DNA of 64,000 nt from Pseudorhodoferax sp. Leaf274 (GTDB lineage: Bacteria > Pseudomonadota > Gammaproteobacteria > Burkholderiales > Burkholderiaceae_C). Below the pieces are notes generated by a model that saw nothing but the letters and a program-made list of their open reading frames with translations, had not been told where the DNA came from and searched no databases. Of the stretch, positions 30,393-46,961 are shown in pieces. The stretch is from positions 65,227 to 129,226 of the forward strand of contig NZ_LMNA01000004.1 of NCBI RefSeq assembly GCF_001422445.1, given 5' to 3'. The position numbers and the translations under genes are program-made. Numbering within the stretch: position 1 is the stretch's first letter; each line of letters opens with the position of its first letter.

Positions 30393-31503
30393 CGCTAATC
30401 CTTTCCAGGACATCGTAGATATTGTCAATTTTCCCCCCCAGAATAGAATAGCACCCAGGGAGATCACGGTGTTTCTCGAACAATATTGGCCGTCCGTCAT
30501 CACCCTCGCTTTTGACCAAGACAGTCTTGACTTCGAAAAGCGAATCGACACGGCGCGCTTCCATGATGGAAGGCAAGTAGCGCCCGACGCTGCGCATCAT
30601 CCAATCCACACGCGTGTCCTTTCGATAATCTGCCAAGACGCTGTAAGGATTCCGCCCAGCTTCGTCCCGCCAATGGAAGTGTGGGGTATAGCGAACATGG
30701 GACAAGGTATGCAAGTTTCGCGCGGGGAAGGGCATCACTGAAAAGAAGGCGCCGTCCATCACCGTGATACCGACGTCCTTCAACACCGGAGGAACATCCA
30801 TGAGCGCCATTTCCGTCACCTCGTGCTTCAGCCCCGCGCCGACGCCAGCGAAGTCCCCGCCGAACTGGTTCAGCCCGCTGTAGGTGCAGTTGAAGACATA
30901 GCGACACCGGATGCAACTGGCCTCACCGCGCCGGTCGACCCCGACGACATCCAGGCCACCGTCCGACGCACGCGTGATCTCCGTCGCCCGTGTTTCCAAA
31001 CGAACGTCCACGCGGCTGGCGGTGAGTTCCCGGCGGGCCCAATCGGCCAGCCGGGTCGAGTCGAACGCATATTCCTCGACCAGGAACACGTCTTCGATCA
31101 AGCGCGCATTGAAAAGCGCGCGCAGGCCCGGCGACGCCGGGCCGATGCGGGCGCCGATCTCATGGCAGAAGCGTTTGAACTGCCGCGCCGTGACATGCGA
31201 GTTCTGGCCTGCGATGGCGTAGAGCTTGGTGAAGTCCGTCTTCACCACCTGCGGCCAGTCCCGTACAAAGCGCGGCAGGTTCACGCGGCTGCGGAAGGCG
31301 GTGGTGAAGCTGCGCGGGTAGTGGTAGCCGTTGTGCACCCGTGCCTGGTTGTTGTAGGAGGCGCGCGTCAGCAGAGCGGCTTCCTGCTCCAGCAGCACGA
31401 CCTTGGCAAACCCGGCCTTCTGCGCCAGGAAGATGGCGATGGCCGCACCGTAGAAGCCACCGCCGACCACCACGGCGTCCGCACTGTCGCAGGCATGGCT
31501 CAT
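30376..31503 (-). CDS. FAD-dependent oxidoreductase (DAO family)
   Basis: Protein of 375 aa. The FAD-binding GxGxxG is in VVVGGGFYGAAIAIFLAQ, followed by LLEQEAALLTRASYNNQA and the flavin-contact VHNGYHYPRS. A C-terminal CYSILGGKIDNIYDV closes the FAD site, as in glycine-oxidase/glycerol-3-phosphate-dehydrogenase-like enzymes. It would oxidise an amine or hydroxyl group of a small or lipid-linked substrate. FAD enzymes of this type occur in some O-antigen and capsule clusters with unknown roles. Its start overlaps the GtrB-like GT2 by 4 nt, and its 3' end overlaps the membrane protein start. Confidence 0.8.
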   Translation of the reverse strand: MSHACDSADAVVVGGGFYGAAIAIFLAQKAGFAKVVLLEQEAALLTRASYNNQARVHNGYHYPRSFTTAFRSRVNLPRFVRDWPQVVKTDFTKLYAIAGQNSHVTARQFKRFCHEIGARIGPASPGLRALFNARLIEDVFLVEEYAFDSTRLADWARRELTASRVDVRLETRATEITRASDGGLDVVGVDRRGEASCIRCRYVFNCTYSGLNQFGGDFAGVGAGLKHEVTEMALMDVPPVLKDVGITVMDGAFFSVMPFPARNLHTLSHVRYTPHFHWRDEAGRNPYSVLADYRKDTRVDWMMRSVGRYLPSIMEARRVDSLFEVKTVLVKSEGDDGRPILFEKHRDLPGCYSILGGKIDNIYDVLERISGEIEV

Positions 31504-32522
31504 GGTGTGGCGTGCACCGCAGCGCCATCGCTGGCCGCAGCCGGCACCACTTCCTCGATGTTCAGCTTCTCGCGCCGCGTCATGCGCGCACTCGTCATTT
31601 CCTGCGCCACGTGGTAGGGAGGCCCTTCGTTGGACAGGCTGCTCATGTGGAGGATGTACTCGCCCAGGATCAGCAAGACCAACGAGATCAGGAAGAACAT
31701 GCCCGATTGCTGTAGCGACATGCTGACCCAGCCCGGCGCGACATCGGCCTTGAATAGCCCGACCGCCACCACATAGGTCGAATACGCCAGATTGGCGACC
31801 GCGCCAAAGAGCGACAGCGACGTCACGATGCGCATGGGGGCCCGCGTGGTCGACACCAGCAGACGCATGCCTCTGTCGATGCTGTCACCGAGGTTCTTGG
31901 TGCGGTGTGCGGCGGGCTCCGACATGTAGGCCAGGTTGACGCGCGAAAACCCACCGGTGGCGGGCAGGTGCCGGTAGGTGATGGCGGGCCGCGGATGCTG
32001 AAGGATGAAGTTCACGACCTTCTTGCTCATCAACCGGTACTGTGGAGCGTCCTTTTCGAGGTGGACGTTGTTGAAGAGCTTGTACAAACCGTTGAAAGCG
32101 CGGTAGGCGGCACGGTAGAGGATGGTCTGCCGCGGCTTTCTGCCGTTGCTGCCGAACACGACATCGACGCCGCCCACAGCCTTGTCGAGCATTTGCGGCA
32201 GGAAGCCGATGTCGTCCAGGAACGGGTCGATCACGGCCACGAAATCGCCCAAAGCGTTCTCCACGCCGACGCACGACGCGGTGTCGCCATCGACATCCTT
32301 GGTCAAGGCATAGACCTGCAGATTGGGCAAGCCCGAGGGGCCGGTCAGCTCCTTGAGAACCGCGATGCTGTCGTCGCGCGAAGCGTTGTCCACCACGATG
32401 AGTTCGTAGTCGCTGACCAGCGGTGCGAGCTTCGCCGTCGCACGTTCCAGGATCGTGGCGAGTTCTGCGGCCTGGTCGCGGACAACGTAGACGACGGAAA
32501 GAAAAATGGGAAAGGGTGCCAT
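31500..32522 (-). CDS. GtrB/ArnC-type GT2 with C-terminal membrane helices
   Basis: GT2 protein of 340 aa. The catalytic part is FLSVVYVVRDQ, IVVDNASRDDS and AVIDPFLDDIGFLPQM. Two membrane helices near residues 235-300 (SLSLFGAVANLAYSTYVV and GMFFLISLVLLILGEYIL) follow. This is the layout of undecaprenyl-phosphate glucosyl- or aminoarabinosyl-transferases. It would charge undecaprenyl phosphate with a sugar for transfer by a GT-C enzyme, such as the product of the gene 36 nt upstream. Its stop overlaps the FAD oxidoreductase start. Confidence 0.87.
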   Translation of the reverse strand: MAPFPIFLSVVYVVRDQAAELATILERATAKLAPLVSDYELIVVDNASRDDSIAVLKELTGPSGLPNLQVYALTKDVDGDTASCVGVENALGDFVAVIDPFLDDIGFLPQMLDKAVGGVDVVFGSNGRKPRQTILYRAAYRAFNGLYKLFNNVHLEKDAPQYRLMSKKVVNFILQHPRPAITYRHLPATGGFSRVNLAYMSEPAAHRTKNLGDSIDRGMRLLVSTTRAPMRIVTSLSLFGAVANLAYSTYVVAVGLFKADVAPGWVSMSLQQSGMFFLISLVLLILGEYILHMSSLSNEGPPYHVAQEMTSARMTRREKLNIEEVVPAAASDGAAVHATP

Positions 32523-32558
32523 GGTTTGTGGAAGCGGCGCTTGCGAATGGAGCGAACG

Positions 32559-34553
32559 TCAGCGCCGGCCGGCGCTGGGCAAGGGGCGCCATTGTGGCAA
32601 CGCGGAAACCGCCACTGCGACCATGAACACAAACACCGGGATCATCGGAGCCATGTAGCGCGCCTGCACGCCGTTCCAGGAACTGGCGTCGAGGATGCCG
32701 AACAGGACAGCACGGGAGACCACCATCGTGCCGGCGATGCCGCAGACAGCCAAGACCGGCACGGGCACGAAGCGTCGGACGCCCCAAGCGACCACGGCCA
32801 CCAGCAACACGGCCAGCAGCGCGATGTTGATTCCCTGGTAGAGCTGGCCCAGTCGGGCGAGCCAGTCCCAGGTCACAGGCACACCGCGCAGCTGCGACAG
32901 CCAGCGTTCGATCCGGTCGCCGCGGCGCCCGGCAACGAGTTCATCCACCCCGAGGGTGACCGCAACGGCACCCTGGGTGGTCGCCATCGCCCCAGCGCGC
33001 ATCTGACTGAATGGCAGCCGCCCCAAGGAACCGTCGGCAGTGCGCACCACCAGCGCATCGTCGCCGCCCGCACCCGGCGCGGCCAGACTAAACGCCAATG
33101 CACCAGGAACGTCGGGGCGACGGCCAAGGTCGGACAACATCGTCCAGCCTACGGGCTCTGCGCCGCCCTGAGACAGGCCCACCGAGGCGCCCGGAGGCAA
33201 CATGATCCAGCCCCGCACGCGGGTCGAGGGCACTGGGTTGCGCCGCCCGACGATCTCGATGAACGACGCCATCTGCTGCGGTGTCGCGTTTTCTGCCGGC
33301 AGTCGAACGGACGCAGGGCTACCGTCCACCACGAGGCGCAAGGCACCCCAGCTCGATCCCGGCACACGGCCGATCCATTTGCCCAGGTCAGGGTCGAGGA
33401 ACGAAGGTGTCCAGGCAGGATAGGCCGGCAAGCGGCCTGCATCGAACGCAGCCTCCAATTCATTGGCGATGGCGTGGTACTTCGTTTCGGCAGCCCGTGC
33501 GCTGCTGTGCCAGCCCACCATGGCCCCGGCATCGCGCACGGCCCAGTAGAACCAGCCGTTGCCGATCTCGCCTTCGTGGCCAGTGAACTGCGCCGTGTGC
33601 ACTGCCAGCACGCGGCCTGGCTCGCCTTCGAAGAATCCCTGCAGCTCCCGGAAGGTCGGACTGTGCTCATACGCGAGCTGCCGGGCCTTGCGCGTCACCG
33701 TCACATGCAGCAGGCCGGGACCTGCGTCGATGCGGTTGAGTGCCGCGATGGCACGCTCGTAGCCTGGGGCGGCCAGCTCGTACCGGACAGCGACGCCCCA
33801 ACGCAGATAGTTCATTCCGGCGAGTCCGGCGCCGAGCACCAGGGTCGCCAGCAGCGGCAAGCCGACAAACCGCATGCCCAGCGTACCGGTCCGCAGCGAC
33901 GGCCACCACTGTGCACGGTGCAGCAGCGAGCACGCCCCGAGCAGGACCAGGGGCACGAAGAACAGCACACCTTCCTTGCGGACATGGAATGCCAGCGCAA
34001 ACGACAGGGCGAGCACACAGGTCGCCACCGGCGCGCGGCGCCCTCCCTGCATCGCGCGCGTGTTCCACACCTCCAGTGCGGCGCCGAGAAGCCAGGGCAT
34101 CAGCACCACCAGCAGGGTCTCCGACAATGCGCGGTCGAACATGGCAATGAACAGGGGGTGGAAGGCGCACAGCAGCCAGAACGCCGCGCCGATCCACCGA
34201 CGCCCGGAAAACCGCACCAGCGCATAAGCGGCGTATGCGACGCCGGACAGCCACGCCAGGTCGATTCCCAGACGCGCCGGCAGGCCCAGAGCGTTCTGCA
34301 GCGCCAGCCAGATGGAATAGACCGGCAGGTTCGCAAATGCCATCTGGTTGTAGTTGCCTCCCCAAACCAGGCGTGCGGCGCTGTGAACGAACCAATACTC
34401 GTCGTAAGGCGAGTTCAGCGCCAGGATGTCGCGGTCGGATGACAGGAAGAGCCGGGCGAGCAATGCCAGGACGCCAGCCCCCCCCCATAGCACCATCCAA
34501 CGCCATCGGCGTCCATGCCGTTCTCCGGGTTCGATCACGTAAGCCTCTTGCAT
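32559..34553 (-). CDS. GT-C (GT39/GT83-like) membrane glycosyltransferase
   Basis: Integral membrane protein of 664 aa. The first periplasmic loop has LNSPYDEYWFVHSA, where the Asp-Glu pair is typical of GT-C catalytic sites. About ten membrane helices follow, including FSGRRWIGAAFWLLCAFHPL. A large periplasmic domain (about residues 250-540) precedes the last helices. GT-C enzymes transfer sugars from polyprenyl-phosphate donors to a polymer or lipid in the periplasm. With the GtrB-like synthase encoded next to it, the pair fits Gtr-type side-branch addition to the O-antigen. Confidence 0.75.
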   Translation of the reverse strand: MQEAYVIEPGERHGRRWRWMVLWGGAGVLALLARLFLSSDRDILALNSPYDEYWFVHSAARLVWGGNYNQMAFANLPVYSIWLALQNALGLPARLGIDLAWLSGVAYAAYALVRFSGRRWIGAAFWLLCAFHPLFIAMFDRALSETLLVVLMPWLLGAALEVWNTRAMQGGRRAPVATCVLALSFALAFHVRKEGVLFFVPLVLLGACSLLHRAQWWPSLRTGTLGMRFVGLPLLATLVLGAGLAGMNYLRWGVAVRYELAAPGYERAIAALNRIDAGPGLLHVTVTRKARQLAYEHSPTFRELQGFFEGEPGRVLAVHTAQFTGHEGEIGNGWFYWAVRDAGAMVGWHSSARAAETKYHAIANELEAAFDAGRLPAYPAWTPSFLDPDLGKWIGRVPGSSWGALRLVVDGSPASVRLPAENATPQQMASFIEIVGRRNPVPSTRVRGWIMLPPGASVGLSQGGAEPVGWTMLSDLGRRPDVPGALAFSLAAPGAGGDDALVVRTADGSLGRLPFSQMRAGAMATTQGAVAVTLGVDELVAGRRGDRIERWLSQLRGVPVTWDWLARLGQLYQGINIALLAVLLVAVVAWGVRRFVPVPVLAVCGIAGTMVVSRAVLFGILDASSWNGVQARYMAPMIPVFVFMVAVAVSALPQWRPLPSAGRR

Positions 34554-34598: not shown

Positions 34599-36200
34599 TC
34601 ACCGCAACGGCACCAGCAGACGCTGGCCGTTCCAGTCGGTCCTGACCGGCGCCGTCGCCGAGGTGTTGCTCAGCCCACGGTGGTCGTACACCGCGATGCC
34701 TAGCATCTCGATCGCCCGCAGATCGACGCCCTCCCGCGATGCGAAATTGCTCCATTGCTGCCCGACCGGGGCATGGCGATAGCCAGTGTCCATGACGAAG
34801 TCCAACTGCCCCAGCATGTTGCCGCTGCCGTCGAGCAGATGCACGCCGACCCGCTTCGCCAATGCGGTGCTCTTCGCCGCAGTCCATGAAAACCGCAAGG
34901 TCCCCCCTTGCACCTCGATCGCATCCAGGCGGTAGGCCTCGTCGAAGACGACTGGATGTGCCAGCTTGTTGCGGTCCGGTGCGGCCGGCTCCATGGAGAA
35001 CCATCGCGCCGTGGGCTGCGCCACGACCAGCACGAGAACCACGGCACAGAAGGCCGACATCAGCCGCCACCGGGAGATGCCGCCACGGGCCTCGTCCCGC
35101 CAGCCTCGAATCAGGCGTTGTGCAGGAACCTCCACGCAGAGATGCAGCAGCGCCGCACCAGCCAACCCGCAGATCCAGTACCACGCATAGATCGCGTCTG
35201 CGGGCAGGCCCATAAAGATGCCAGGAGCCTGCTGGAGATACAGCAGGAACAGGGTGTGCACCAGGTAGAGGGCAAAACTGATTTCGCCGAGGAAGACCAA
35301 TGGTTTGGTCCCCAGAATGCGCGACAGACGTCCCGTCTGAAGGGCAAACACAAAAATGGCGACCGCATAGATCAAGGTGCCGAAGCCGCTGGCCTCCAAC
35401 ACCAGCGACCCCGTCCGGCCCACCAGGTCCAGCACCGCAGGATGGTGCGCAAGCAGCCGCGATGCCCACAGACCGAAGACGATCAGGACAACAGTGCCGA
35501 GTTCGAGCACAGTCCCCATGCGCCCGATGGCCGCACGGACACGCGCGCCATGGTCTCGGTAGGCATGGCAGACCGCGATGCCGAGCGCAAACTCGAGAAT
35601 GCGCGCCAGCGGGCTGATGTAGGCGAACCCGCCCCGCATGAACTCTGCTTGCGGCCCTACCGCGAAGCGGCTGCTCAACCACCACATGACCATCGTCACG
35701 GCGGCAAGTCCAGCCATCTTGATCTTCCACGTAGTCTGCCAGTTGGAGATCAGGAGCGGGAAGGCTAGGTAGAAGAAGAATTCGGTCGAGATGCTCCACG
35801 AGACCGCGTTGTAAGCCGAGTAGTACGACCCCAGGGGCAGCCACGCATGCGTCAGTGTCACGTACGCCGCCGTGATGGCGGCACGGCTGCCCTGCGGCAG
35901 GGTGTGGGACGAGATGTTCCCGATGAAGACGATGAACAGCACGGTCGCAGCGATGTGCGCAGGCCAGATCCGCGCGACCCGTGCCAGCAGGAAGCGGCCG
36001 ATGTCCTTGGCCCCGTGCAGAACCGGGTAGTTGTAGGCCAGGACGAACCCGGACAGGACGAAGAAGAAGCTCACGCCCTGCCCCAGCGCGAAATGGGACG
36101 CCCATTGCGGTCCCAGCCCGCGCTCGATCGCATGGTGCACAACGATCATCGCGGCCGCAAAGAAGCGCAATGACGTCAGGGAATCAAGTTTCTGGGTCAC
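34599..36200 (-). CDS. Acyltransferase family 3 (OafA/YrhL-like) with extra C-terminal domain
   Basis: Protein of 533 aa beginning with a GTG. The catalytic membrane domain (about residues 1-370) carries SLRFFAAAMIVVHHAIE, with the conserved His, and FFFVLSGFVLAYNYP, the family hallmark. Residues about 400-533 form a beta-rich soluble domain (TLRFSWTAAKSTALAKRVG onward) which has no SGNH esterase motif that I can see. The likely role is O-acetylation, or another acyl modification, of an O-antigen sugar. It lies between two glycosyltransferase genes with short gaps (45 and 66 nt). Confidence 0.85.
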   Translation of the reverse strand: MTQKLDSLTSLRFFAAAMIVVHHAIERGLGPQWASHFALGQGVSFFFVLSGFVLAYNYPVLHGAKDIGRFLLARVARIWPAHIAATVLFIVFIGNISSHTLPQGSRAAITAAYVTLTHAWLPLGSYYSAYNAVSWSISTEFFFYLAFPLLISNWQTTWKIKMAGLAAVTMVMWWLSSRFAVGPQAEFMRGGFAYISPLARILEFALGIAVCHAYRDHGARVRAAIGRMGTVLELGTVVLIVFGLWASRLLAHHPAVLDLVGRTGSLVLEASGFGTLIYAVAIFVFALQTGRLSRILGTKPLVFLGEISFALYLVHTLFLLYLQQAPGIFMGLPADAIYAWYWICGLAGAALLHLCVEVPAQRLIRGWRDEARGGISRWRLMSAFCAVVLVLVVAQPTARWFSMEPAAPDRNKLAHPVVFDEAYRLDAIEVQGGTLRFSWTAAKSTALAKRVGVHLLDGSGNMLGQLDFVMDTGYRHAPVGQQWSNFASREGVDLRAIEMLGIAVYDHRGLSNTSATAPVRTDWNGQRLLVPLR

Positions 36201-36266: not shown

Positions 36267-37610
36267 TCATGCCTGGATCTCGGCATAGACGTCGAGCGTG
36301 TCCTTCGCCATGTCTGCGATGGTTCTCTCGTAGCCGGTGGTCTCGGCAAGGGCGTAGAGCCCCTCCGGCGCTGCGAGCAAGTCCCTCAAGCGGACAAACA
36401 ACGCATCGGCGCTGCCTCTGTCGAATGCATATCCGTTGCGGCCCGGCTCCAGAAACTCTGTCATTCCTGCCACGTCGGAGACCAGGACCGGCGTATGGGT
36501 CGCCAAGGCGTTCAGAAGAACCAACGGACTGTTCTCGTACCAGCGAGAGGGGATCACCAGCACATCCATCTCCGCCAGCTTCGACGCCATCTGCGCCGAT
36601 GGAAATGTGCCGAGGAACGACACCTTGTGTCCCTCGGCAAGAGACCGCAAGCTTGCCATGTAGGTGGGGTCCTGGTCGGCCGGCCCGTGGATCCGCAGTT
36701 CCGCAGCGTCCTTCGGAAGACGGCGAAAGGCTTCGATGAGCAGGTCTGTCCCCTTGTGCGGCGCGATCTGGCCGATGAAGCCGATCACCGGCCGGTGGCC
36801 GGGCGCGCGGCGGGGCTTGGAACTGCGGTCGATGTCCACGCCGAACCAGATGTCACGCATCGGGGTCGCGATGCCATTGGCCTCATAGGCTTTCTTCAGA
36901 AAACGCGTCGGCGCCACGGCGCCCTTGTACCCACCGTTGTACAAGCCCAGCAGTGTGTCGGGGCGGCGCGCAATGTCCTCCAGCAGGCCATCGACGGGCC
37001 CGTTGCGCAGACCCGGCAAGCGTCTACCAAAGTTGGCCGCGCTCGCGATCCACTGCGCCGAGCGCGGCGTGGTGGCTCGACGGACCCACCGGTCTGCATA
37101 GGGGCTGCGTGCCGCATCCTTGAGGTAGCAGGCCATGCAGTTCGTGCGCGAGGGGGAAGGTCCTGCGCACAGGTCGCCGTTGGCCGCCTCCAGCTTGTTG
37201 TTAAGGCAGAACCCAAAAAAATCAGTGAACGTGGCGTAAGTGGCAATGCCAAGCTGCTGCGTCACTTCGAGCAGCGCCGCCGTGTGGTTGATCAGATGCG
37301 TGACATGCACAACGTCTGGCTTGAGCTCGCGCAACACGCCTTCCAGCACAGGACGCATGTCGGGCTGGTAGTAGGTTTCCTTGACGCGCGTGTGCGGCAC
37401 GCTGTTCTTGTCGATGCAGACAACTGGAATGCCCTGGTGCTCATAGCGGCTCACGAGTCCATCGCGTGCAGGCTCACCTTGGAACACTGCCGACACGACA
37501 ACGACATCGTGGCCAGCCGCACGGTAGTACTTGGCCAGGTCCAGCGTGTACGTCTCTGTGCCGTAGAAATGCTCAGGAAAAAAGCAGTGGACGAAGAATG
37601 CAACTTTCAC
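36267..37610 (-). CDS. Family 4 glycosyltransferase
   Basis: GT-B protein of 447 aa. It starts KVAFFVHCFFPEHFYGTET, has a cysteine-containing middle insert (LCAGPSPSRTNCMACYLKD), and a donor domain with GFIGQIAPHKGTDLLIEAF and RWYENSPLVLLNAL. The E-containing WYENSPLV segment is the retaining-GT4 site. It shares its layout and several motifs with the GT4 at 21789-23138, so the two are probably paralogues. Its start overlaps the stop of the large fusion gene (37607-37610), so it is probably made with the polymerising machinery. The donor sugar is unknown. Confidence 0.88.
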   Translation of the reverse strand: MKVAFFVHCFFPEHFYGTETYTLDLAKYYRAAGHDVVVVSAVFQGEPARDGLVSRYEHQGIPVVCIDKNSVPHTRVKETYYQPDMRPVLEGVLRELKPDVVHVTHLINHTAALLEVTQQLGIATYATFTDFFGFCLNNKLEAANGDLCAGPSPSRTNCMACYLKDAARSPYADRWVRRATTPRSAQWIASAANFGRRLPGLRNGPVDGLLEDIARRPDTLLGLYNGGYKGAVAPTRFLKKAYEANGIATPMRDIWFGVDIDRSSKPRRAPGHRPVIGFIGQIAPHKGTDLLIEAFRRLPKDAAELRIHGPADQDPTYMASLRSLAEGHKVSFLGTFPSAQMASKLAEMDVLVIPSRWYENSPLVLLNALATHTPVLVSDVAGMTEFLEPGRNGYAFDRGSADALFVRLRDLLAAPEGLYALAETTGYERTIADMAKDTLDVYAEIQA

Positions 37611-40600
37611 GCGGGATCCTTGCGCGGCTGTTCGCTGACCTCAGCGTAGATGCGCGCGTAACTGGCAATCATGGCCTGTATCGAGAAATTTTCCTGGGCA
37701 CGCCGCTGCTGTGCATCGCCCAGCCGATGGATGCTCTCAGGCGCATCGAGCAGCCCGACAGCGATGCCGGCCAGTCGCTCAGCGTCGGCGGGCGGCGCCA
37801 GTAGCGCGCGGTCGCCAACGATCTCACCGATGGCACCGATGTCGTAGCCGATCACAGGCACCTTCATGCTCATCGCAAACGGGCTGACCTGGCCGAAGCT
37901 CTCTTTCCACACCGGCGCGACGAACAAGCTCATGCGTCGGTACAGCGCCGGCAGTTGGTCGTAGCTGACATAACCCGTGAACTCGAAGTTGTCTGCGACC
38001 CCCGCGGCCTGCACTGCATCCCGGTACGGCTCGTACAGACTGCCGCCGCCAACGATCAGGATGCGCGTCTGTGGTCGCAACTGCGCGATGCGGATGAAAG
38101 GCAGGATGGCGTCTTCATTGAGCTTGTCGCGCTCGAGGCGGTAGACCATGCCCACGCAATCAGCCGGTGCGTGTTCGGCAGGGCCGCGCGTGAAGAGATC
38201 GAAATCCGAACCCGGATAGACGGTCACGTGCTCCGCATCGGGTGAGCCAAAGACGTTGCGCACGTAGTCACTCACGTAGACGTAGCGGGCGACAGCCTCA
38301 GATCGGTGTGGCGCGATTGGCGTGTTGACGTTTTCGATCACCGGCAAGCCGAGGTGTTTCGCCGCCTCGATGACCGTGGCATACCAAGGCTCGTCGCAGT
38401 CGCCCCAGTAATGCACGTGCACCATGTCCGGCCGCGTGCGCTGGAAGTACGCGACGAGCGGTCCGATGTCCTGAGGAAAACGGCACTCTTCGATATCCAC
38501 TCCCACGTAGGCAGGCGGGTCCGGATTAAAGCTCGTCAGCACGGTCTGCCGGTACTGGCTTCCCAAATACTCGACCAGGTCGATCACCAGGCGCGACGAG
38601 CCCCCCGTCATGAAGTTGGCGATCGCATGGACGATCTTGGGCGCATCAGCGGGGGCGGCTGGTGGCACCTTCACCTGGTAAGCGCTCGAATCGCTGTTGT
38701 TGGTAGCGGGCACTACGGGGGTGAGGCCGAACAGGCGCTGCAGTCGCGGCACGAGGCTGGAACGCCAACGGCGCGGCAGCAGCCCGCCGCCGACGGTGGC
38801 GACAAGCAACAACAGCTTGCGGAAACCAAAAGGATGGGTAAGCAGAATGTCGCGCAACCGGAACCAGCGCGTCAGCTTCAGGGCCTGCAGCGCTGCGGCA
38901 GTGGTTTGCTGTTCTGCCTTCACTTCGTTGTAGCGTGCTTGGCCGTCGGCCAGCAATTTGTCGCGCTTGGCTACCTCGGCATAGAAGTAGTGGCGCTCCT
39001 CGTCAGTGCGCTGAGCCTGCGCCGCGATCTCCTGTTCAAGCGCATGGATCCGCACAGGCAGCGCGGCCAGGCTTTCACGCAATGTCTCGGATTCCCGCAA
39101 GGCGTTCCGATGGACCATGTCCAGCTGCAGAACATGTTCGGCCTGCATGCTGTTCAACTCCAGGCCCAGTGCGTGGAGCCGTTCTTGCTTCTCGTGCACA
39201 GCAGCCTCGAGTCGTGCAATCTCCGAGGCTTGGCGGGCAAGATCCTCTTCCTTACGCGATAGCACCTCATGGGCACCCTCCAATTGCTGGCCGATCTCCT
39301 GCAACCGCTGGTCCTTCGCCTCCACCGTGGTTCCCATCAACACGTGCAGGCCGTTCAATTCCGTCCCGAGCGCTTGAAGGCGTTCGTGCTTGTCACGGAT
39401 CTCGGCTTCCAGGCGCGCGACCTCATGCCCGACCTCGGAAAGTCGCAGATCCTTCGCTGCAATCACCGCAGTCAGATCGGCGACCTCAGGCGATCGGGCA
39501 TCCTTAACTTGGTGGAGCGCCTGCAACTCTAGGCCAACATCTTTGAGCCGCTCATCCTTCAACAACACAACAGCCTCAAGCCGGTGAATCTCCTCACCGA
39601 GTCGCGCCAGATCTCCATCCTTGCGGGCCACTTCCGCTTCCAGGCGATAGAGGTTTTCCGGGTTCCAGCTGGCGACCCGCACGTTCAAACGCCACTGGGC
39701 GACAAGCTCGACCGTCAGCGCGGCGGCCGGCCGCATGCCGACCCGGCCTTGGATGGAATTTTCCTGGGCCACGTAGACCGCCAGGTCGTCCTCGGACACC
39801 GGAACGCCGATACCGCTCGCCAAACCGAGCAGGATGTCCTGCAAAGCAACACTGCATTCCGGCGCAGCCTGAGCCACCGATGTCACACCGAAGAAGCTCA
39901 AACCCAGACTGCGGAAGACGAGGAAGCCAAGCGAGCATGGCTCGCTCAAATGCCATTCCTGATCGAAAAACACAGCATCGTCGGGCGAGCGCACGATCAA
40001 GTTGCGCGGCACGGCATCGAAGTGGTTGCCGTCGATGGGCGTGTTCTTGTCCAGTGCGGCATCTGCAGCCAGATCCGCATGCCGGACGAATGCCCTGAAC
40101 CATGTCGCGGCCCAAGGCAGCAGCTGTTCCATGGACCAGCCCGGACGATTCAGGATGCGCACCAGCTCCTTCTGCCAGTGCTGGCCAGAAACGAATTCGA
40201 CCTCCTCGAATTCGACAGCCAAGCCGTCCGCCGTCTGTTCCCAGAACCCTTCAGGTCCGACCAGTGGGCGGTGCTGGACCAGGATGTTGTCCGCCGCGTC
40301 TTGCGTAAAGGCAACCTCTTTCGCGAAAGACTGGCGACGCGCACTGGCGTAGTGAAAGGCAAGTGCCTGCGGCTCTGGGAGTGGTCGATCGGAGGCCACG
40401 ACCGCAAATGAATTCGCCAACGCGCCAGCCAAGCGATTGCGGAACACGGGCGCCCATGCGCTTTCGAGCGAGAAACTGGTGGCACCGCGCTGGGGATCGG
40501 CAAGCACCGAGTTCTGCAACAGCGGCGCCAGATCGACCGAGGCATGCACGCCGGACTCAGACAGGATGCTGATCGGAAACTTGTAGTCGGGAAACGGATA

Positions 40601-41341
40601 CCACCAGCGCTGGTGGTCCCAGCCCGCAGCACCAAGAAGGCTACGCAGTTCATGCTCACCGAACGTTACGGCGTCGGAGTTGCCATAGAGGTCCTCGATG
40701 CCGTACATGGGCACACCGTTGTGGTCTTCCGGTCGGCCTGCGAAGTACTTGAGACCGAGCTGGTTCTCGATTGCCAGCAGCAAGACTCCGCCCGGCTTCA
40801 ACATGGTGCGAGCGCGGGCCAGGGTCGCCGCGATGGGATCCCGTCCTGGCTCCGCTGCGAAATACTTGCGCGCGTACTCGAGCACACCGATCAACGTGAC
40901 GACATCGAAGCGTTCTGCAGGCTCGAAGCTGTCGAAGCTGTCGCAGACGACCGAGACGTTGCCAAGTCCGCGGCAACGTGCGGCGGCAATCTCCGCGCGG
41001 ACGATGCTGCCCTCGAGTGCCACCACATCTGCACCAAACTCACCCAATGCCCGCGTGATGGCGCCACAGCCGCAGCCGATCTCAAGCACGGAACCTGCCA
41101 GCAGGCTACGGAACGGCCGCAGCAGGTTGATGCGACCGCGCCCGAGGTGGTAATGACTCGGCCAGTCATTGATCGCCTCTGCAAGCTCTTCAGAAAATAT
41201 GCTTGGGTCTGCGCACCCACGCACGATGCCCAGAATCCGCTGCTCCACAGCATCGCCGTCGCTGTAGGCGAACGCGTGGAGTTCCGGGCGGCGCCAAACG
41301 CCAGTCCGGGCATCGAACGAATAGTCTTCAGGCAGCCGCAT
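37607..41341 (-). CDS. Four-part fusion: SAM methyltransferase, kinase-like domain, coiled coil and GT4; WbdD-like O-antigen capping/length candidate
   Basis: Protein of 1244 aa starting at MRLPEDYSFD, with AAGGGGGG upstream. Residues about 60-250 are a class I methyltransferase (VLEIGCGCGAITRALG at about 85-100). Residues about 330-500 carry the kinase motif HxDxxPxN as HFDAVPRN (H440, D442, N447) and FFDQEW with D460 in the DFG-like place. Residues about 560-820 form a long coiled coil with repeated LEAEVARKD/RLEAEIRDKHERLQAL-type heptads. Residues about 890-1244 are a GT4 domain (IANFMTGGSSRLVIDL, SFGQVSPFAMSMKVPVIGYD). E. coli WbdD has methyltransferase, kinase and coiled coil in the same order and ends O9a chains; here a glycosyltransferase is fused behind it. 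The gene follows wzt with a 14-nt overlap. Confidence 0.85.
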   Translation of the reverse strand: MRLPEDYSFDARTGVWRRPELHAFAYSDGDAVEQRILGIVRGCADPSIFSEELAEAINDWPSHYHLGRGRINLLRPFRSLLAGSVLEIGCGCGAITRALGEFGADVVALEGSIVRAEIAAARCRGLGNVSVVCDSFDSFEPAERFDVVTLIGVLEYARKYFAAEPGRDPIAATLARARTMLKPGGVLLLAIENQLGLKYFAGRPEDHNGVPMYGIEDLYGNSDAVTFGEHELRSLLGAAGWDHQRWWYPFPDYKFPISILSESGVHASVDLAPLLQNSVLADPQRGATSFSLESAWAPVFRNRLAGALANSFAVVASDRPLPEPQALAFHYASARRQSFAKEVAFTQDAADNILVQHRPLVGPEGFWEQTADGLAVEFEEVEFVSGQHWQKELVRILNRPGWSMEQLLPWAATWFRAFVRHADLAADAALDKNTPIDGNHFDAVPRNLIVRSPDDAVFFDQEWHLSEPCSLGFLVFRSLGLSFFGVTSVAQAAPECSVALQDILLGLASGIGVPVSEDDLAVYVAQENSIQGRVGMRPAAALTVELVAQWRLNVRVASWNPENLYRLEAEVARKDGDLARLGEEIHRLEAVVLLKDERLKDVGLELQALHQVKDARSPEVADLTAVIAAKDLRLSEVGHEVARLEAEIRDKHERLQALGTELNGLHVLMGTTVEAKDQRLQEIGQQLEGAHEVLSRKEEDLARQASEIARLEAAVHEKQERLHALGLELNSMQAEHVLQLDMVHRNALRESETLRESLAALPVRIHALEQEIAAQAQRTDEERHYFYAEVAKRDKLLADGQARYNEVKAEQQTTAAALQALKLTRWFRLRDILLTHPFGFRKLLLLVATVGGGLLPRRWRSSLVPRLQRLFGLTPVVPATNNSDSSAYQVKVPPAAPADAPKIVHAIANFMTGGSSRLVIDLVEYLGSQYRQTVLTSFNPDPPAYVGVDIEECRFPQDIGPLVAYFQRTRPDMVHVHYWGDCDEPWYATVIEAAKHLGLPVIENVNTPIAPHRSEAVARYVYVSDYVRNVFGSPDAEHVTVYPGSDFDLFTRGPAEHAPADCVGMVYRLERDKLNEDAILPFIRIAQLRPQTRILIVGGGSLYEPYRDAVQAAGVADNFEFTGYVSYDQLPALYRRMSLFVAPVWKESFGQVSPFAMSMKVPVIGYDIGAIGEIVGDRALLAPPADAERLAGIAVGLLDAPESIHRLGDAQQRRAQENFSIQAMIASYARIYAEVSEQPRKDPA

Positions 41342-42719
41342 CGGCGCCCCCCTTGGCAACCACACCGCCCGCTGCAGCGCCATGGAACTCCGACTGCATC
41401 TGCGCGCCGACATCGAAAATGCCGCTGAAAGCCTGGTGCTCTGCCGCGAGCACGGTGAGCAGGATGGAGTCATAGCGGCGGTCGTGCGGCACCACATCGC
41501 CATTGGGCTGGCGAGATGCCACGCCTATCGAGATGAAATAGTCGCCCGGCGCGAAAGATGCCAAGAAGGAGATCGCGACCCCTAGAGCATGGCCCGCGTC
41601 GCCGGAACCGCCGATACTGCCGCAACGCTGCAGCTCCGAATTGGTGTTGTACAGGGTCACGCCCTCTTTCGTCTTGATGGTGAACCCCACGATGGGCCGC
41701 ACGATGTGCGAGATAAACCGGATGGACAGCCTCAGTTGGACCCCGGCCCCGGAATGCACGGCGCCGACATCGGCTCGTCCACCCTCTTGCATGCAATGGT
41801 CCAACAGCAAGGCGCCACCATCGCCCCACCTGTATTCATGGGCGTTGTACGTAGGATGCAGATGGAAGCGGTCGTCGGTGACCGACAGCCCATAGCTCTG
41901 TTCAGCAACGTCCTCAGTTGGCAGGGCGGCGGCCTCGACGTCCCCCACTCGCTCCACACCGAACATGTCGTCCAGATACAGGTTGATGACGTCACGCGGC
42001 TTGCCAATGGCCACCACGTCACCTGATTTCAGGAACACGGCCCTGTCGCAATGGGTGGCGATCTGCTCGGTCGAATGCGATACGAGCAGGATGGACGTAC
42101 CTTGCGCCTTGAGCTTCTTGAGGTGGGCAAAGCACTTGGCCTGGAACTTGGCATCACCGACGGCAAGTGCCTCGTCCACGATCAGGATGTCAGGGTTGGA
42201 CTGCGCCTGCACTGCAAAGGCCAGACGGACAACCATGCCGCTCGAATAGTTCTTGACGGGCTGAGAGATGAACTCACCAATGTCGGCAAATGCCACGATG
42301 TCGTCGAAACGGGCATCGATCTCGTCCTTGCGAAGACCAAGCACGGCGCCGTTGAGGTAGACGTTCTCTCGGCCAGTGAACTCTGGATTGAAACCCGACC
42401 CCAACTCCAGCAGCGCCGCGATACGACCAGATGTGCGCACTGACCCGCGCGACGGCGTCAGAGTGCCGCAGATCATCTGGAGCAAGGTTGACTTGCCCGA
42501 TCCGTTGCGCCCGATGATGCCGACCGTTTCACCCTTTTGGACAGCAAACGAAGCGTTCTTCAATGCCCAGAACTCACGGTAGTAAGGCGATGCGGATGGG
42601 CGACCCAACATGCGTCGCAGCCGCGGCACGATGAACTGCTTCAGGCGATCACGCGGAAGTTCGTAGACCTGATAACACTTCCCAAGCCCGTCGACTTGGA
42701 CCGAAAACTCAGAGGACAT
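41328..42719 (-). CDS. wzt: O-antigen ABC exporter ATPase with extended C-terminal domain (Wzt)
   Basis: Protein of 463 aa. The nucleotide-binding domain has Walker A GRNGSGKST, signature NYSSGMVVRLAFA and Walker B ILIVDEALAVGD. Residues about 290-463 form a beta-rich extra domain (RFISHIVRPIVGFTIKTKEG, APGDYFISIGVASR) like the carbohydrate-binding domain of Wzt in E. coli O9a and O8. In those systems this domain recognises the modified non-reducing end of finished chains and licenses export. Here it would be expected to read the cap made by the adjacent fusion protein. The start MSSEFSVQ was chosen so that it overlaps wzm by only 11 nt. Confidence 0.92.
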   Translation of the reverse strand: MSSEFSVQVDGLGKCYQVYELPRDRLKQFIVPRLRRMLGRPSASPYYREFWALKNASFAVQKGETVGIIGRNGSGKSTLLQMICGTLTPSRGSVRTSGRIAALLELGSGFNPEFTGRENVYLNGAVLGLRKDEIDARFDDIVAFADIGEFISQPVKNYSSGMVVRLAFAVQAQSNPDILIVDEALAVGDAKFQAKCFAHLKKLKAQGTSILLVSHSTEQIATHCDRAVFLKSGDVVAIGKPRDVINLYLDDMFGVERVGDVEAAALPTEDVAEQSYGLSVTDDRFHLHPTYNAHEYRWGDGGALLLDHCMQEGGRADVGAVHSGAGVQLRLSIRFISHIVRPIVGFTIKTKEGVTLYNTNSELQRCGSIGGSGDAGHALGVAISFLASFAPGDYFISIGVASRQPNGDVVPHDRRYDSILLTVLAAEHQAFSGIFDVGAQMQSEFHGAAAGGVVAKGGADAAA

Positions 42720-43560
42720 CCGCGAAACCTTTGCGCGTCTTCTGGAACCAGGCATATCCAGCCCAGGCCACGAAGACAGCGACAAGCATGTAAACACCAA
42801 GCCCCAGCCAATCTGGCGCCTTGCCCCAGATCAGGACGCTGCGCGCCTGCTCGATGATGAAAGTCAGTGGATTGAGAAAGAGCCACGCCTGCATGCTTTG
42901 CGGCAGTGCGGTCACCGGATAGAACACCGGCGCCAGAAACATCATGGCCGACGTGATGATGCCCACGGTCTGGCTGACGTCTCGTAGATAGACGCCCAGC
43001 GAGGCCAGGATCCAAGCCAACCCCGTCGTCAACACCAGCAGCGGCAGGAACACCAGGGGGGCCAGGATCGCTGACCAGTGCAGGTATCCGGTGAAGAACA
43101 GAATCGCCACCAGCAGGACTCCCAGGCTCACCATGCAATGAAACAGCGCCGCAAGCACGCTGACAAGCGGCAGGATCTCCAAAGGAAAAACCACCTTCTT
43201 GACCAGATTGGCATTGGCGAGCACAAGGGCCGGCGCCCGATTGAGCACTTCAGACAGCAATCCATGCACCATCAGGCCCACGAACAGCACGATCGCGAAC
43301 TGAGCCTTGCCTTCCTCGGCGCCCACGCTCCAGCGCGCCTTGAACGCCACGGAGAAGACGAAGGTGTAGACCGCCAACATCAGCACAGGATTGAAGAAGG
43401 ACCAGGCCATGCCAAGGAACGAGCCTTTGTAGCGCCCCACGACCTCGCGCTTGGCCAACTGGAACACAAGATGGCGATGCCTGCGGACTCCGCGTACCAG
43501 TGCCAAAAGAGAGGTGGGAGGCGCCGCGTGGGGATCCGCCACGACGGACGAAGTCGTCAT
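42709..43560 (-). CDS. wzm: O-antigen ABC exporter permease (Wzm)
   Basis: Integral membrane protein of 283 aa of the ABC-2 polysaccharide export family. An amphipathic N-terminal stretch and VGRYKGSFLGMAWSFFNPVLML (family signature near residue 45) are followed by six hydrophobic segments. These include the pore region LAWILASLGVYLRDVSQ and the C-terminal LNPLTFIIEQARSVLIWG. With Wzt it would move undecaprenyl-linked glycan across the inner membrane. The start overlaps rfbC by 4 nt. Confidence 0.93.
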   Translation of the reverse strand: MTTSSVVADPHAAPPTSLLALVRGVRRHRHLVFQLAKREVVGRYKGSFLGMAWSFFNPVLMLAVYTFVFSVAFKARWSVGAEEGKAQFAIVLFVGLMVHGLLSEVLNRAPALVLANANLVKKVVFPLEILPLVSVLAALFHCMVSLGVLLVAILFFTGYLHWSAILAPLVFLPLLVLTTGLAWILASLGVYLRDVSQTVGIITSAMMFLAPVFYPVTALPQSMQAWLFLNPLTFIIEQARSVLIWGKAPDWLGLGVYMLVAVFVAWAGYAWFQKTRKGFADVL

Positions 43561-44102
43561 GGGAACTGGTCCGCGTCCGCGAGGGGAAGGCCCTGCTGAT
43601 CCTTGGCCGACAAGTTGGGTAGACCTTCAAGCGGCCAATCGATCCCGATGGCTGGATCGTTCCATGCAATACAGCGCTCGTATTCCGGCGCGTAGTACTC
43701 AGAGGTCTTGTACAGGAAGTCGGCTGTGTCGCTCAGGACCAGGAATCCGTGGGCGAAACCTTCTGGAATCCATAGCTGGCGCTGGTTGCCTTCGGTGAGC
43801 TCCACGCCCACCCAACGCCCGAAGGTCGGAGACGACCTCCGCAAATCGACGGCGACGTCGAACACGGCGCCGCGAACGACGCGCACCAGCTTGCCCTGCG
43901 GGCGATGGATCTGATAGTGCAGGCCGCGCAGCACGCCTTTTGCAGACCGGGAATGGTTGTCCTGCACGAAGTCGACACGCCGCCCAACGGCAGCCGCGAA
44001 TTGAGCGCTATTGAAGCTTTCAAAGAAGAACCCCCGCGCATCGCCGAACACCTTGGGTTCGATGACGACCACATCGGGAATTTCTGTTGGCACGATCTTC
44101 AT
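43557..44102 (-). CDS. rfbC: dTDP-4-dehydrorhamnose 3,5-epimerase
   Basis: Cupin-fold enzyme of 181 aa, the third step of dTDP-L-rhamnose synthesis. The catalytic His/Asp region is visible: [19 protein letters not shown] with the essential histidine, then [13 protein letters not shown], and [15 protein letters not shown]. The C-terminal [20 protein letters not shown] is family-typical. The length matches RmlC. It overlaps rfbA by 4 nt (44099-44102) and wzm by 4 nt. Confidence 0.95.
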
Positions 44103-44989
44103 CGAGCGCGTCCTTCCTTGACCAATCGCAGCAGGTACTGACCGTAGCCATTCTTGCGCACGGTGTCGGCAAGTCGAGAGATCTGAACATCGTCGATCCA
44201 CCCAGCCCGCCATGCAATCTCTTCGGGGCAAGCAATCTTCAGCCCCTGTCGATTTTCCAGCGTTGCGATGAACTGCCCCGCTTCCAGCAGGCTTTCGTGC
44301 GTGCCCGTGTCCAACCAAGCGTAGCCACGCTGCATCACCTGCACGTTGAGTTGGCCTCGTTCCAGGTAAATCTGGTTCACCGCAGTGATCTCAAGTTCGC
44401 CGCGTGCGCTGGGTTTCACGGCCTTGGCAATTTCCACGACCTGTTCGTCATAGAAATACAGGCCTGTCACGGCATAGCTGCTCTTGGGCTGCGCCGGCTT
44501 TTCCTCGATGCTGCTGGCCCGGCCTGCCTTGTCAAAGGCCACCACTCCATAGCGCTCCGGATCGTTGACGTGGTACGCGAACACCGTAGAGCCATGCTTC
44601 TCCGCACTGGCCGCGGCAAGCAGGTGGGCCAAGTCGTGACCATAGAAAATGTTGTCACCCAGGACCAAGGCACTGGCTGCGCCTGCAAGAAACGCCTCTC
44701 CGATCAAGAAAGCCTGCGCCAACCCATCCGGACTCGGCTGCACCGCATACTGCAGGTTCAACCCCCACTGGCTTCCATCCCCCAGCAACTGCTGGAACCG
44801 CGGCGTGTCCTGCGGCGTGCTGATCACCAGGATGTCGCGGATACCTGCCAGCATCAGAGTGCTCAGCGGGTAATAGATCATCGGCTTGTCATACACCGGC
44901 AGCAGCTGCTTGCTGATCGCCAACGTGGCCGGATGCAGTCGGGTGCCGGAGCCGCCTGCGAGGATGATGCCCTTGCGTTGTGTCGTCAT
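44099..44989 (-). CDS. rfbA: Glucose-1-phosphate thymidylyltransferase
   Basis: Nucleotidyltransferase of 296 aa, the first step of the dTDP-L-rhamnose pathway (Glc-1-P plus dTTP). The signature is [19 protein letters not shown], followed by [18 protein letters not shown]. Further motifs are [33 protein letters not shown] and [17 protein letters not shown]. The length and motifs fit RmlA long forms. It overlaps rfbD upstream (44986-44989) and rfbC downstream by 4 nt each, showing tight coupling. dTDP-rhamnose commonly inhibits this enzyme in the family. Confidence 0.96.
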
Positions 44990-45894
44990 GCGGAGCGCTC
45001 CATGGTTTCGGTGAGCATGCGGGCCACGCCCGTTTGCCAATGCGGCAGTACGAGGCCGAAGGTCTCGCGGAGCTTGCGCGTGTCCAGGCGACTGTTGCCG
45101 GGTCGTGGGGCTGCCACCTTGAAGGCGCTGGAGGCAACGGCCTGCACGGCCTCGCCGGTGGCCTTCAGTGCCAGCCCACGTTGCTGAGCGAAGTCGATCA
45201 CAAAGCGCGCGTAGCCATGCCAGGAGGTTTCGCCTGCGGCCGCAAGGTGGTACAGGCCAGCCAGCGCGTCGCCACTCTCCGCTTGCGCACGGCGCAGCAC
45301 CAGGGCCGTCACATCGGCCAGCAACTCCGCGCCGGTCGGCGCACCGAACTGGTCGTCCACCACCGTCAGGCGTTCGCGCTCTGCCGCCAACCGCAACATG
45401 GTCTTGGCAAAGTTCTGTCCGCGCGCGGCATAAACCCAGCTCGTGCGAAAGATCAGGTGGCGGGCGCAATGCTGCTGCAACAGTTGCTCGCCTTCGAGCT
45501 TGGTGCGGCCATAGACGGACAGCGGGCCAGTCGGGCTGCTCTCGGTCCAAGGCACGCTGCCGCTGCCGTCGAACACGTAGTCGGTGGAGTAATGGACCAT
45601 CCATGCGCCCAACGCCTGCGCCTCACGCGCCAGCGTGCCCACGCCCAGCGCGTTCAACGCGCGCGCGAACTCGGGTTCGCTCTCCGCCTTGTCCACCGCC
45701 GTGTGGGCGGCGGCATTCACGATGACGTTGGGCGCCACGCTGCGCACGGTCGCGGCCAGTTCCTCGGGGCGGCTCAAATCACCACACAGGTCAGTGCTGT
45801 CGAAGTCCAGCGCCACCAACTCGCCCAGCGGCGCAAGGCTGCGCTGCAGTTCCCAGCCGACCTGCCCGCCCTTGCCCAACACCAGGATCTTCAT
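44986..45894 (-). CDS. rfbD: dTDP-4-dehydrorhamnose reductase
   Basis: Extended SDR of 302 aa, the last step of dTDP-L-rhamnose synthesis. The cofactor loop is [12 protein letters not shown], the catalytic region is [13 protein letters not shown] and [11 protein letters not shown] (YxxxK), and the substrate region is [13 protein letters not shown]. The start [10 protein letters not shown] was chosen; longer readings would run into rfbB. The order rfbB-rfbD-rfbA-rfbC is the common one for beta- and gamma-proteobacterial rhamnose operons. Confidence 0.95.
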
Positions 45895-46961
45895 GCCGTC
45901 ACGCGCTCGCCGTAGTTGGTCGACACCCACTCGCGGTAGGCGCCGCTCTGCACGCGCGCGACCCAGTCGGCGTGCTCCAGATACCAATCCACGGTCTTGC
46001 GGATGCCCGTGTCGAAGGTCTCGGCCGGCTTCCAACCGAGTTCTCGCTCGAGCTTGCGGGCGTCGATGGCATAGCGGCGGTCGTGCCCAGGGCGATCGGT
46101 CACGTAAGCGATCTGCTCCGCGTAGGACGTGCCATCGGCGCGCGGCCGCTTCTCGTCCAGCAGCGCGCAGACCGTGTGCACGATCTCCAGGTTGGGCTTC
46201 TCATTCCAGCCGCCCACGTTGTAGGTCTCGCCAAGCTGGCCGGCTTCCAGCACGCGGCGGATGGCGCTGCAGTGGTCGCCGACATAGAGCCAGTCGCGGA
46301 TCTGCTGGCCGTCGCCATACACCGGCAGCGGCTTGCCGGCCAGGGCGTTGACGATCATCAGCGGGATCAGCTTCTCGGGAAAGTGAAACGGGCCGTAATT
46401 ATTGCTGCAATTGGTTGTAACAGCAGGCAAGCCGTAGGTGTGGTGGTAAGCGCGTACCAAGTGGTCGCTGGCCGCCTTGCTGGCCGAATAAGGGCTGTTG
46501 GGCTCGTAACGGTGCTGCTCGGTGAACGCGGGCGCCTGCGCCTCGAGAGAGCCATAGACCTCGTCGGTGGACACATGCAGGAAGCGGAAGGCCGCCTTGC
46601 GGTCGGTCGGCAGCGCACCCCAATAGGCCCGCACAGCCTCCAGCAGGCCGAAGGTACCGACCACGTTGGTCTCGATGAAAGCGGCCGGCCCATGGATGGA
46701 GCGGTCGACATGCGATTCCGCCGCGAAGTTGACGACAGCGCGCACCTGGTGCTCGGCCAACAGCCGGCCGACCAGCGCCGAGTCGCCGATGTCGCCCTGC
46801 ACGAACTGGTGCCGCGCATCGCCGGCCAGGCTGGAGAGGTTGTCGAGGTTGCCGGCGTAGGTGAGCTTGTCCAGGTTGATGACTGGTTCGCCCGCCGTGG
46901 CAATCCAGTCCAGGACGAAGTTGGTGCCGATGAAGCCGGCGCCGCCGGTGACAAGGATCAT
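45891..46961 (-). CDS. rfbB: dTDP-glucose 4,6-dehydratase
   Basis: Extended SDR of 356 aa, the second step of the pathway. It has [13 protein letters not shown] at the N-terminus, [25 protein letters not shown] (T/D/E catalytic triad), [12 protein letters not shown] (YxxxK) and the dTDP-site [15 protein letters not shown]. It is the first gene of the leftward O-antigen operon. No strong ribosome site is seen before the ATG. The 100-nt gap to the divergent phasin gene should hold the promoter; a GATAAT hexamer occurs there on the minus strand without a clear -35. Confidence 0.96.

What the first reader, a model, noticed from the sequence alone, without database searches (positions are those of the whole stretch)
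37607..42719. WbdD-like methyltransferase/kinase/coiled-coil protein fused to a GT4, next to a Wzt with a chain-end-binding-type domain
In E. coli O9a, WbdD caps the glycan with methyl and phosphate groups, and its coiled coil acts as a ruler for chain length. Here one 1244-aa protein has a methyltransferase (GCGCG loop), a kinase catalytic loop HFDAVPRN with a DFG-like FDQEW, and about 260 residues of coiled coil. Unlike WbdD it also carries a whole GT4 domain at its C-terminus. The adjacent Wzt has an extra beta-rich domain as in O9a. Polymerase, ruler and terminator may thus be combined in one protein, a different solution from the separate WbdA/WbdD pair.
Basis: partly seen in the sequence, partly recalled or inferred. 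Interest (0 to 1): 0.85.

Follow-up and report, generated by a model that had tools for sequence, protein, structure and literature searches.

The report
O-antigen capping enzyme fused to glycosyltransferase
One bacterial protein appears to carry a methylating and a phosphorylating enzyme that cap surface sugar chains, a long rod that may set chain length, and a sugar-adding enzyme; this layout is already known from Klebsiella, but here the kinase seems to have moved a key residue to a new place.

Summary
Observation confirmed: window 37607-41341 (-) encodes 1244 aa (methyltransferase, kinase-like domain, about 264-residue coiled coil, linker, GT4), overlapping wzt, whose product has a Wzt_C domain, in an rmlBDAC-wzm-wzt operon. 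"WbdD-like, a new combination" is only partly right. The capping module matches the Klebsiella O7 ORF6 / Legionella Lcin_0519 type: six SAM-pocket residues at O7 spacing, D442 for O7's D441, an APH/choline-kinase-like D-x-x-P-x-N...D-x-E-W site, and no WbdD hit from the kinase profiles. O7 ORF6 already joins methyltransferase, kinase, coiled coil and glycosyltransferases in one protein, with biochemical proof (JBC 2024). So it is a new variant of a known kind: GT4 tail, E-x7-F instead of E-x7-E. Worth testing: (1) among 37 relatives a lysine lies in the canonical strand (16) or, as here, in the preceding strand (20), never both, one neither: probably one WNK-like relocation; (2) in two close pairs the only internal indel of 3 aa or more lies in the coiled coil, 21 and 49 aa, whole heptads, though a third close pair breaks this. 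I found neither in print in the searches made. Catalysis, cap identity and ruler action of this protein are inferred, not shown.

The parts
37607..41341 (-). fused protein P0001, 1244 aa: methyltransferase - kinase-like - coiled coil - linker - GT4
40622..41164 (-). SAM methyltransferase domain (residues about 60-240)
   Evidence: Pfam; Y26, Y64, G89, G91, E110, Y156 at O7 ORF6 spacing (O7 residues from PMC11231755)
39707..40444 (-). kinase-like domain (residues about 300-545)
   Evidence: alignment of relatives; weak APH/choline-kinase resemblance at the catalytic loop
39953..40021 (-). catalytic loop and metal motif HFDAVPRN...FFDQEW (D442, N447, D460, E462)
40319..40321 (-). codon of K341, lysine in the strand before the usual one (proposed relocated ATP lysine); the usual position, residue 357, is His
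38870..39661 (-). coiled coil, residues about 561-824, putative molecular ruler
39424..39425 (-). site (after residue 639) where the Leaf265 relative has 21 extra residues (3 heptads)
38642..38866 (-). hydrophobic/basic linker, residues 826-900, possible membrane contact
   Evidence: sequence; no TM span by hydropathy; membrane role inferred
37610..38641 (-). GT4 domain, residues about 901-1244, E-x7-E altered to E-x7-F
   Evidence: dN/dS 0.07
41328..42719 (-). wzt: ABC ATPase with C-terminal Wzt_C domain (41409-41837)
42709..43560 (-). wzm: ABC-2 permease
36267..37610 (-). stand-alone GT4, overlaps the fused gene by 4 bases
43557..46961 (-). rmlC, rmlA, rmlD, rmlB (dTDP-rhamnose supply); gene limits approximate
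34599..36200 (-). membrane acyltransferase (PF01757)

Best explanation
A chain-terminating protein of ABC-transporter-dependent O-polysaccharide assembly, of the K. pneumoniae O7 ORF6 / Lcin_0519 type. Proposed action: the C-terminal GT4, held near the membrane, adds a sugar to the growing lipid-linked, probably rhamnose-containing chain (perhaps with the separate GT4 at 36267-37610). The coiled coil holds the capping module away from the membrane, so that only chains long enough reach it. The kinase-like domain phosphorylates the non-reducing end and the methyltransferase methylates that phosphate. The Wzt_C domain recognises the capped end and the chain is exported. Shown here: domain content, conserved catalytic residues, purifying selection on each domain, gene order. 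Inferred: every enzymatic step, the cap being methyl-phosphate, and ruler action. In this clade the ATP-contacting lysine has probably moved to the preceding strand, as in WNK kinases.
For: Six SAM-pocket residues at exactly O7 spacing and D442 beside O7's D441 (O7 values, where D441A abolished kinase activity). D-5-N-13-D as in PKA D166/N171/D184 (PKA numbers). Best PDB match of the kinase profile is choline kinase 4r77, aligned on exactly these residues, though not significant. hhalign against 12 APH proteins gives P 0.0035 on the same columns; four other families give 0.37-0.70. A wzt-type gene in 13 of 27 first-round loci, 12 of them with Wzt_C, in 7 of 10 later loci, and an annotated ABC permease and ATPase just upstream in 2 of 2 plasmid loci. 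dN/dS against Leaf265: methyltransferase 0.06, kinase-like 0.11, coil 0.18, GT4 0.07. After the predicted start codons, the only indel of 3 aa or more between window and Leaf265 is 21 aa in the coil; between L040 and L041 it is 49 aa in the coil plus a 6-aa difference at the C-terminal end.
Against: No usable fold of the kinase (mean pLDDT 48.3) or the GT4. The choline-kinase hit has E 0.14 and a septin, surely irrelevant, follows at 0.32; the hhalign probability is only 9% over 23 columns. O7 ORF6 itself was in no collection I could search, so kinship rests on residue positions printed in a paper. E-x7-F leaves GT4 activity open. 14 of 27 first-round loci show no wzt in the stretch fetched (some only 4 kb), so not every relative need work with Wzm/Wzt. 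Heptad steps are not general: L063/L064 (85% identical) differ by 20, 6 and 54 aa, L084/L087 by 3 and 4 aa in the coil zone. The polysaccharide of this organism is unknown.
Confidence: 0.8

Rival explanations
1. The kinase-like domain is a pseudokinase in this clade: the canonical lysine is lost and K341 is incidental. The protein only methylates the chain end, like the methyl-only cap of serotype O5.
For: The canonical lysine position is His here and Tyr, Cys, Thr, Ser, Arg or His elsewhere in its clade; one relative (L130) lacks lysine at both places, and L094 has Glu where the metal Asp is expected (print).
Against: D442, N447 and E462 stay conserved; 20 of the 21 proteins lacking the canonical lysine keep K341; dN/dS of the kinase region is 0.11.
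Confidence: 0.15
2. The GT4 tail is not part of the repeat-unit polymerase. It adds a single adaptor or side residue, or is a scaffold, and polymerisation lies in other GTs such as the neighbouring GT4.
For: E-x7-E is E-x7-F here; 14 of 16 GT4 rows compared keep both Glu, the other exception being the neighbour P0003 with E-x7-N. A separate GT4 is encoded just downstream.
Against: GT4 dN/dS 0.07, like the methyltransferase. In O7 the GTs at this position are polymerase modules.
Confidence: 0.4
3. It is a true WbdD orthologue that acquired a GT4.
For: Same domain order methyltransferase-kinase-coil and wzm-wzt neighbours.
Against: No WbdD hit from the kinase profiles at E<=10 or from the whole protein at E<=1; D-x-E-W instead of the DFG named in the WbdD paper; the positional match is to O7 ORF6. 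WbdD's methyltransferase may hide among the 131 of 191 hits not shown.
Confidence: 0.05

Closest known systems
Klebsiella pneumoniae O7 ORF6 (PMC11231755, JBC 2024)
   Same: Methyltransferase - kinase - coiled coil - glycosyltransferases in one protein of an O-antigen ABC-transporter system; SAM residues Y28/Y66/G91/G93/E112/Y158 and D441 correspond to Y26/Y64/G89/G91/E110/Y156 and D442 here
   Different: O7 has an immunoglobulin-like CBM after the kinase and two GT2 modules; here no Pfam hit lies between kinase and coil and the tail is a GT4 with E-x7-F. The main text never mentions 'lysine', so O7's lysine type is unknown to me
Lcin_0519 kinase-methyltransferase family (PMC9758233, Sci Rep 2022)
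   Same: Methyltransferase plus kinase without identifiable ion-pair Glu, often a coiled coil, Wzm/Wzt/GT neighbours; reported from Burkholderiales, Klebsiella and others
   Different: The section and passages read mention no fused GT and no lysine relocation; its Fig. 1 and supplement were not seen
WbdD of E. coli O9a (PMC3482155)
   Same: Works alike: methyltransferase, kinase, coiled coil; phosphate then methyl cap
   Different: Eukaryotic-type kinase with DFG; no fused GT; no sequence similarity found in the kinase
WbbB of K. pneumoniae O12 (as described in PMC11231755)
   Same: Polymerase, coiled-coil ruler and terminator in one protein
   Different: Terminator is a beta-Kdo transferase, not a methyltransferase-kinase
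WNK kinases (passages of PMC1989141)
   Same: ATP lysine comes from beta-strand 2 instead of beta-strand 3
   Different: Eukaryotic protein kinases; analogy of one feature, no membership claimed

Membership tests
O7 ORF6 / Lcin_0519-type methyltransferase-kinase terminators | N-terminal SAM methyltransferase with Y, Y, G, G, E, Y at fixed spacing | tested here: met
   38-25-2-19-46, identical to O7 (O7 numbers)
O7 ORF6 / Lcin_0519-type methyltransferase-kinase terminators | kinase Asp at about 441 with Asn and Asp metal ligands | tested here: met
   D442, N447, D460
O7 ORF6 / Lcin_0519-type methyltransferase-kinase terminators | coiled coil after the kinase, wzm-wzt next to it | tested here: met
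O7 ORF6 / Lcin_0519-type methyltransferase-kinase terminators | direct sequence alignment to O7 ORF6 or Lcin_0519 | not testable with these tools
   neither sequence was at hand
O7 ORF6 / Lcin_0519-type methyltransferase-kinase terminators | phosphorylates, then methylates, the chain end | not testable with these tools
   needs an enzyme assay
WbdD | sequence-detectable WbdD kinase domain | tested here: not met
   kinase profiles against PDB sequences at E<=10 gave no WbdD; that WbdD chains are in that file is assumed
WbdD | DFG motif | tested here: not met
   D-Q-E-W here; DFG stated for WbdD
WbdD | separate polymerase recruited by the C terminus | tested here: inconclusive
   a GT4 is fused, and another GT4 is encoded next door
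GT4 | GT-B group 1 profile | tested here: met
   PF13692 9.7e-21
GT4 | E-x7-E motif | tested here: not met
   E-x7-F
Wzt with chain-end-binding domain | Wzt_C domain after the ATPase | tested here: met
   PF14524 1.2e-24, 2r5o 8.1e-21

The most novel reading that the evidence does not exclude
Within a bacterial family of O-antigen capping kinases the ATP-contacting lysine moved once from beta-strand 3 to beta-strand 2, an independent parallel to WNK kinases, and the window protein is an active member that joins capping kinase, ruler and glycosyltransferase. In its genus the coil is lengthened and shortened in whole heptads, so sister species form a natural ruler series for O-antigen length.
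Probability: 0.4. Interest if true: 0.62.

Novelty: new variant of a known kind. Interest (0 to 1): 0.5.

Why it matters
It extends the O7-type terminators to a GT4 fusion, gives a testable case of a relocated catalytic lysine outside eukaryotic protein kinases, and offers species pairs that differ mainly in coiled-coil length: a test of the ruler hypothesis made by nature.

Tried and rejected
WbdD orthology of the kinase was rejected. Two AF2 jobs, with only window, L038 and L039 rows (job 1) and window and L038 rows (job 2), gave weak models: mean pLDDT 48.3, with residues 81-190 (methyltransferase) at block means 61-87 and the kinase unusable, mean pLDDT 47.5, helices of the coil but no GT-B fold. 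No relatives in viral contigs. No match in the E. coli genomes for the DNA of two relatives. My first hhalign run and first GT4 alignment used wrong-strand rows for several loci and were redone. The first lysine table was one column off and was redone. The Fisher value is not used, because the tree needs only one change. No repeated 14-base word was found in the L038 coil DNA, so how the 21-aa indel arose is open. The coil repeats were not tested against chance. WsaE (methyltransferase plus rhamnosyltransferases, from recall) was a lead; only a search listing was seen. Print searches: family and ruler; lysine relocation; one paper, on kinases in general; the O7 main text has no 'lysine'. Supplements, including the O7 paper's orthologue alignment, were not available.

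Full report
What is there. The gene at 37607-41341 (-) encodes 1244 aa and overlaps wzt (41328-42719) by 14 bases; wzt overlaps wzm by 11 bases, and the next GT4 gene overlaps the fused gene by 4. rmlC, rmlA, rmlD and rmlB lie upstream. In 2-kb blocks G+C is 0.53-0.66 between 20 and 46 kb and 0.68-0.75 outside. The genus is probably Pseudorhodoferax: the nearest named relative is Pseudorhodoferax sp. Leaf265 (L038), whose contig has the same length as that of the same-genus genome G002.

Domains. Pfam finds the methyltransferase and the GT4 but nothing between residues 330 and 560. Residues 560-815 carry a 3.5-residue periodicity reached by 1 of 1000 shuffles; three other stretches tested do not. 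AF2 shows helices over about 561-824.

Relatives. Searches with the profile A1 (6 rows, end of methyltransferase plus kinase zone) at E<=1e-10 matched 13 of 369 genomes of the class, 4 of 398 of the phylum, 11 of 399 of the family, 13 of 330 of the order and 2 of 318 of another class; the sets overlap and the first four count the window's own genome. Two of 72,556 plasmid records match the N-terminal 590 residues. I worked with 27 first-round proteins from 27 loci, 2 plasmid proteins and 9 later ones. Dropped from lysine and tree counts: L069 (methyltransferase without kinase) and L133 (interrupted gene). Not fetched: G499, the second G291 match, and a short match in G1289. That leaves 37 kinase-bearing proteins.

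Known precedent. K. pneumoniae O7 ORF6 is one protein with methyltransferase, kinase (D441), CBM, coiled coil and two rhamnosyltransferase modules. It phosphorylates and partly methylates a repeat-unit mimic, D441A is inactive, and orthologues with and without C-terminal GT modules were already noted there (PMC11231755: outline, section 11, part 1 of section 13 and passages seen). The Lcin_0519 family was described in 2022 with Wzm/Wzt/GT neighbours (PMC9758233: section 9 and passages). The window protein has the O7 methyltransferase spacing exactly and D442 for D441. Of the WbdD paper (PMC3482155) I saw the outline and section 7; of PMC1989141 passages only.

Kinase. D442, N447, D460 and E462 are present in all 26 first-round kinase-bearing rows and all 9 later rows; the W of D-x-E-W is Leu in L085. 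In the plasmid protein L094 the metal Asp reads Glu (F-E-R-E-W, print). D to N is 5 residues in all 26 first-round rows; N to D varies from 11 to 15. Profile comparisons point weakly to the APH/choline-kinase type at these residues: 4r77 at E 0.14, followed by a septin at 0.32, and hhalign P 0.0035, probability 9%, against 0.37-0.70 for four control families.

The lysine. Lysine stands either in column 341 (the preceding strand) or in column 357 (the usual strand, V-x-K): 15 and 11 of 26 first-round rows; 17 and 11 of 28 with the plasmid rows; and, as an out-of-sample check, 3 and 5 of 9 later rows, one row having neither (L130). Total: 20 in 341, 16 in 357, 0 both, 1 neither, of 37. L094 has K at 356 and R at 357; with a one-residue shift it could count as both. 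On a tree built without the two columns one change suffices; support for that branch is 97/98 in the first tree but only 83/84 (82% of bootstrap trees) in the larger. In the K341 clade the old position holds H, Y, C, T, S or R. This is the WNK pattern, here from sequence only. One change on a tree is a single observation: it makes relocation likely, not proved.

The ruler. After the predicted start codons, window against Leaf265 (87% identity) shows one indel of 3 aa or more, 21 aa in the coil; L040 against L041 (79%) shows 49 aa in the coil and a 6-aa difference at the C-terminal end (shorter indels were not listed). 21 and 49 are multiples of 7. Six other pairs were compared. L063/L064 (85% identity) differ by 20, 6 and 54 aa towards the C terminus and L084/L087 (58%) by 3 and 4 aa in the coil zone and 21 aa outside it; the rest are more varied. 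So heptad steps hold for the two fused Pseudorhodoferax-genus pairs, not generally.

GT tails. 14 of 37 proteins have a GT domain in the same ORF: GT4 (window, L038; an unrelated GT4 in L126), GT2+GT4 (L040, L041), WbsX (L084, L087), RgpF+GT2 (L091), one GT2 (L092, L130), two GT2 (L068, L070, L093), and GT41/TPR ahead of the module (L129) (relatives scanned at E<=1e-5). L038 and L040 were judged by their scanned sisters; L094, L124, L127 and L132 were not scanned. The window GT4, and that of L038, has E-x7-F. In the 16 rows, 14 have E-x7-E, the window F and the neighbour P0003 N; those 14 are 9 of the 25 GT4 loci and 5 of the 15 plasmid rows printed.

Verdict. A real and well-described finding; the architecture is known, the family is another than the one named, and the lysine and the coil indels are worth testing.

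Noticed in passing
L094 (Citrobacter braakii plasmid pF217-3, record 86452-99005): A relative of this capping module sits with rml genes, an ABC transporter pair and GT genes on a plasmid typed as conjugative: an O-polysaccharide-type cluster that may move between strains.
   Followed up: partly
L129 9947-17488 (-): A 2513-aa ORF with TPR and GT41-type matches first and the methyltransferase-kinase module at its very end, the reverse order.
   Followed up: partly
L069 7413-8648 (-) and L070 4014-8207 (-), one genome (G404), two contigs: The module seems split: one protein has only the methyltransferase, next to wzm-wzt; another has a degenerate methyltransferase, the kinase and two GT2 domains.
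   Followed up: partly
window 26850-34553 (-): A GT2 with weak similarity to ArnC (31500-32522), two polytopic membrane proteins without Pfam hits (28830-30551, 32559-34553) and a weakly EamA-like protein (26850-28235): possibly a periplasmic side-sugar system.
   Followed up: no
L130 5237-9691 (-): Relative with neither lysine but the other kinase residues, placed beside lysine-relocated proteins: candidate pseudokinase.
   Followed up: no
L133 7458-9304 (+): A relative interrupted into two ORFs (methyltransferase part and kinase part) behind wzm-wzt.
   Followed up: no
L039 9992-12331 (+), Velocimicrobium porci: The module occurs with a TPR tail instead of a coiled coil and with no wzm/wzt hit in the 21.5 kb fetched.
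   Followed up: no
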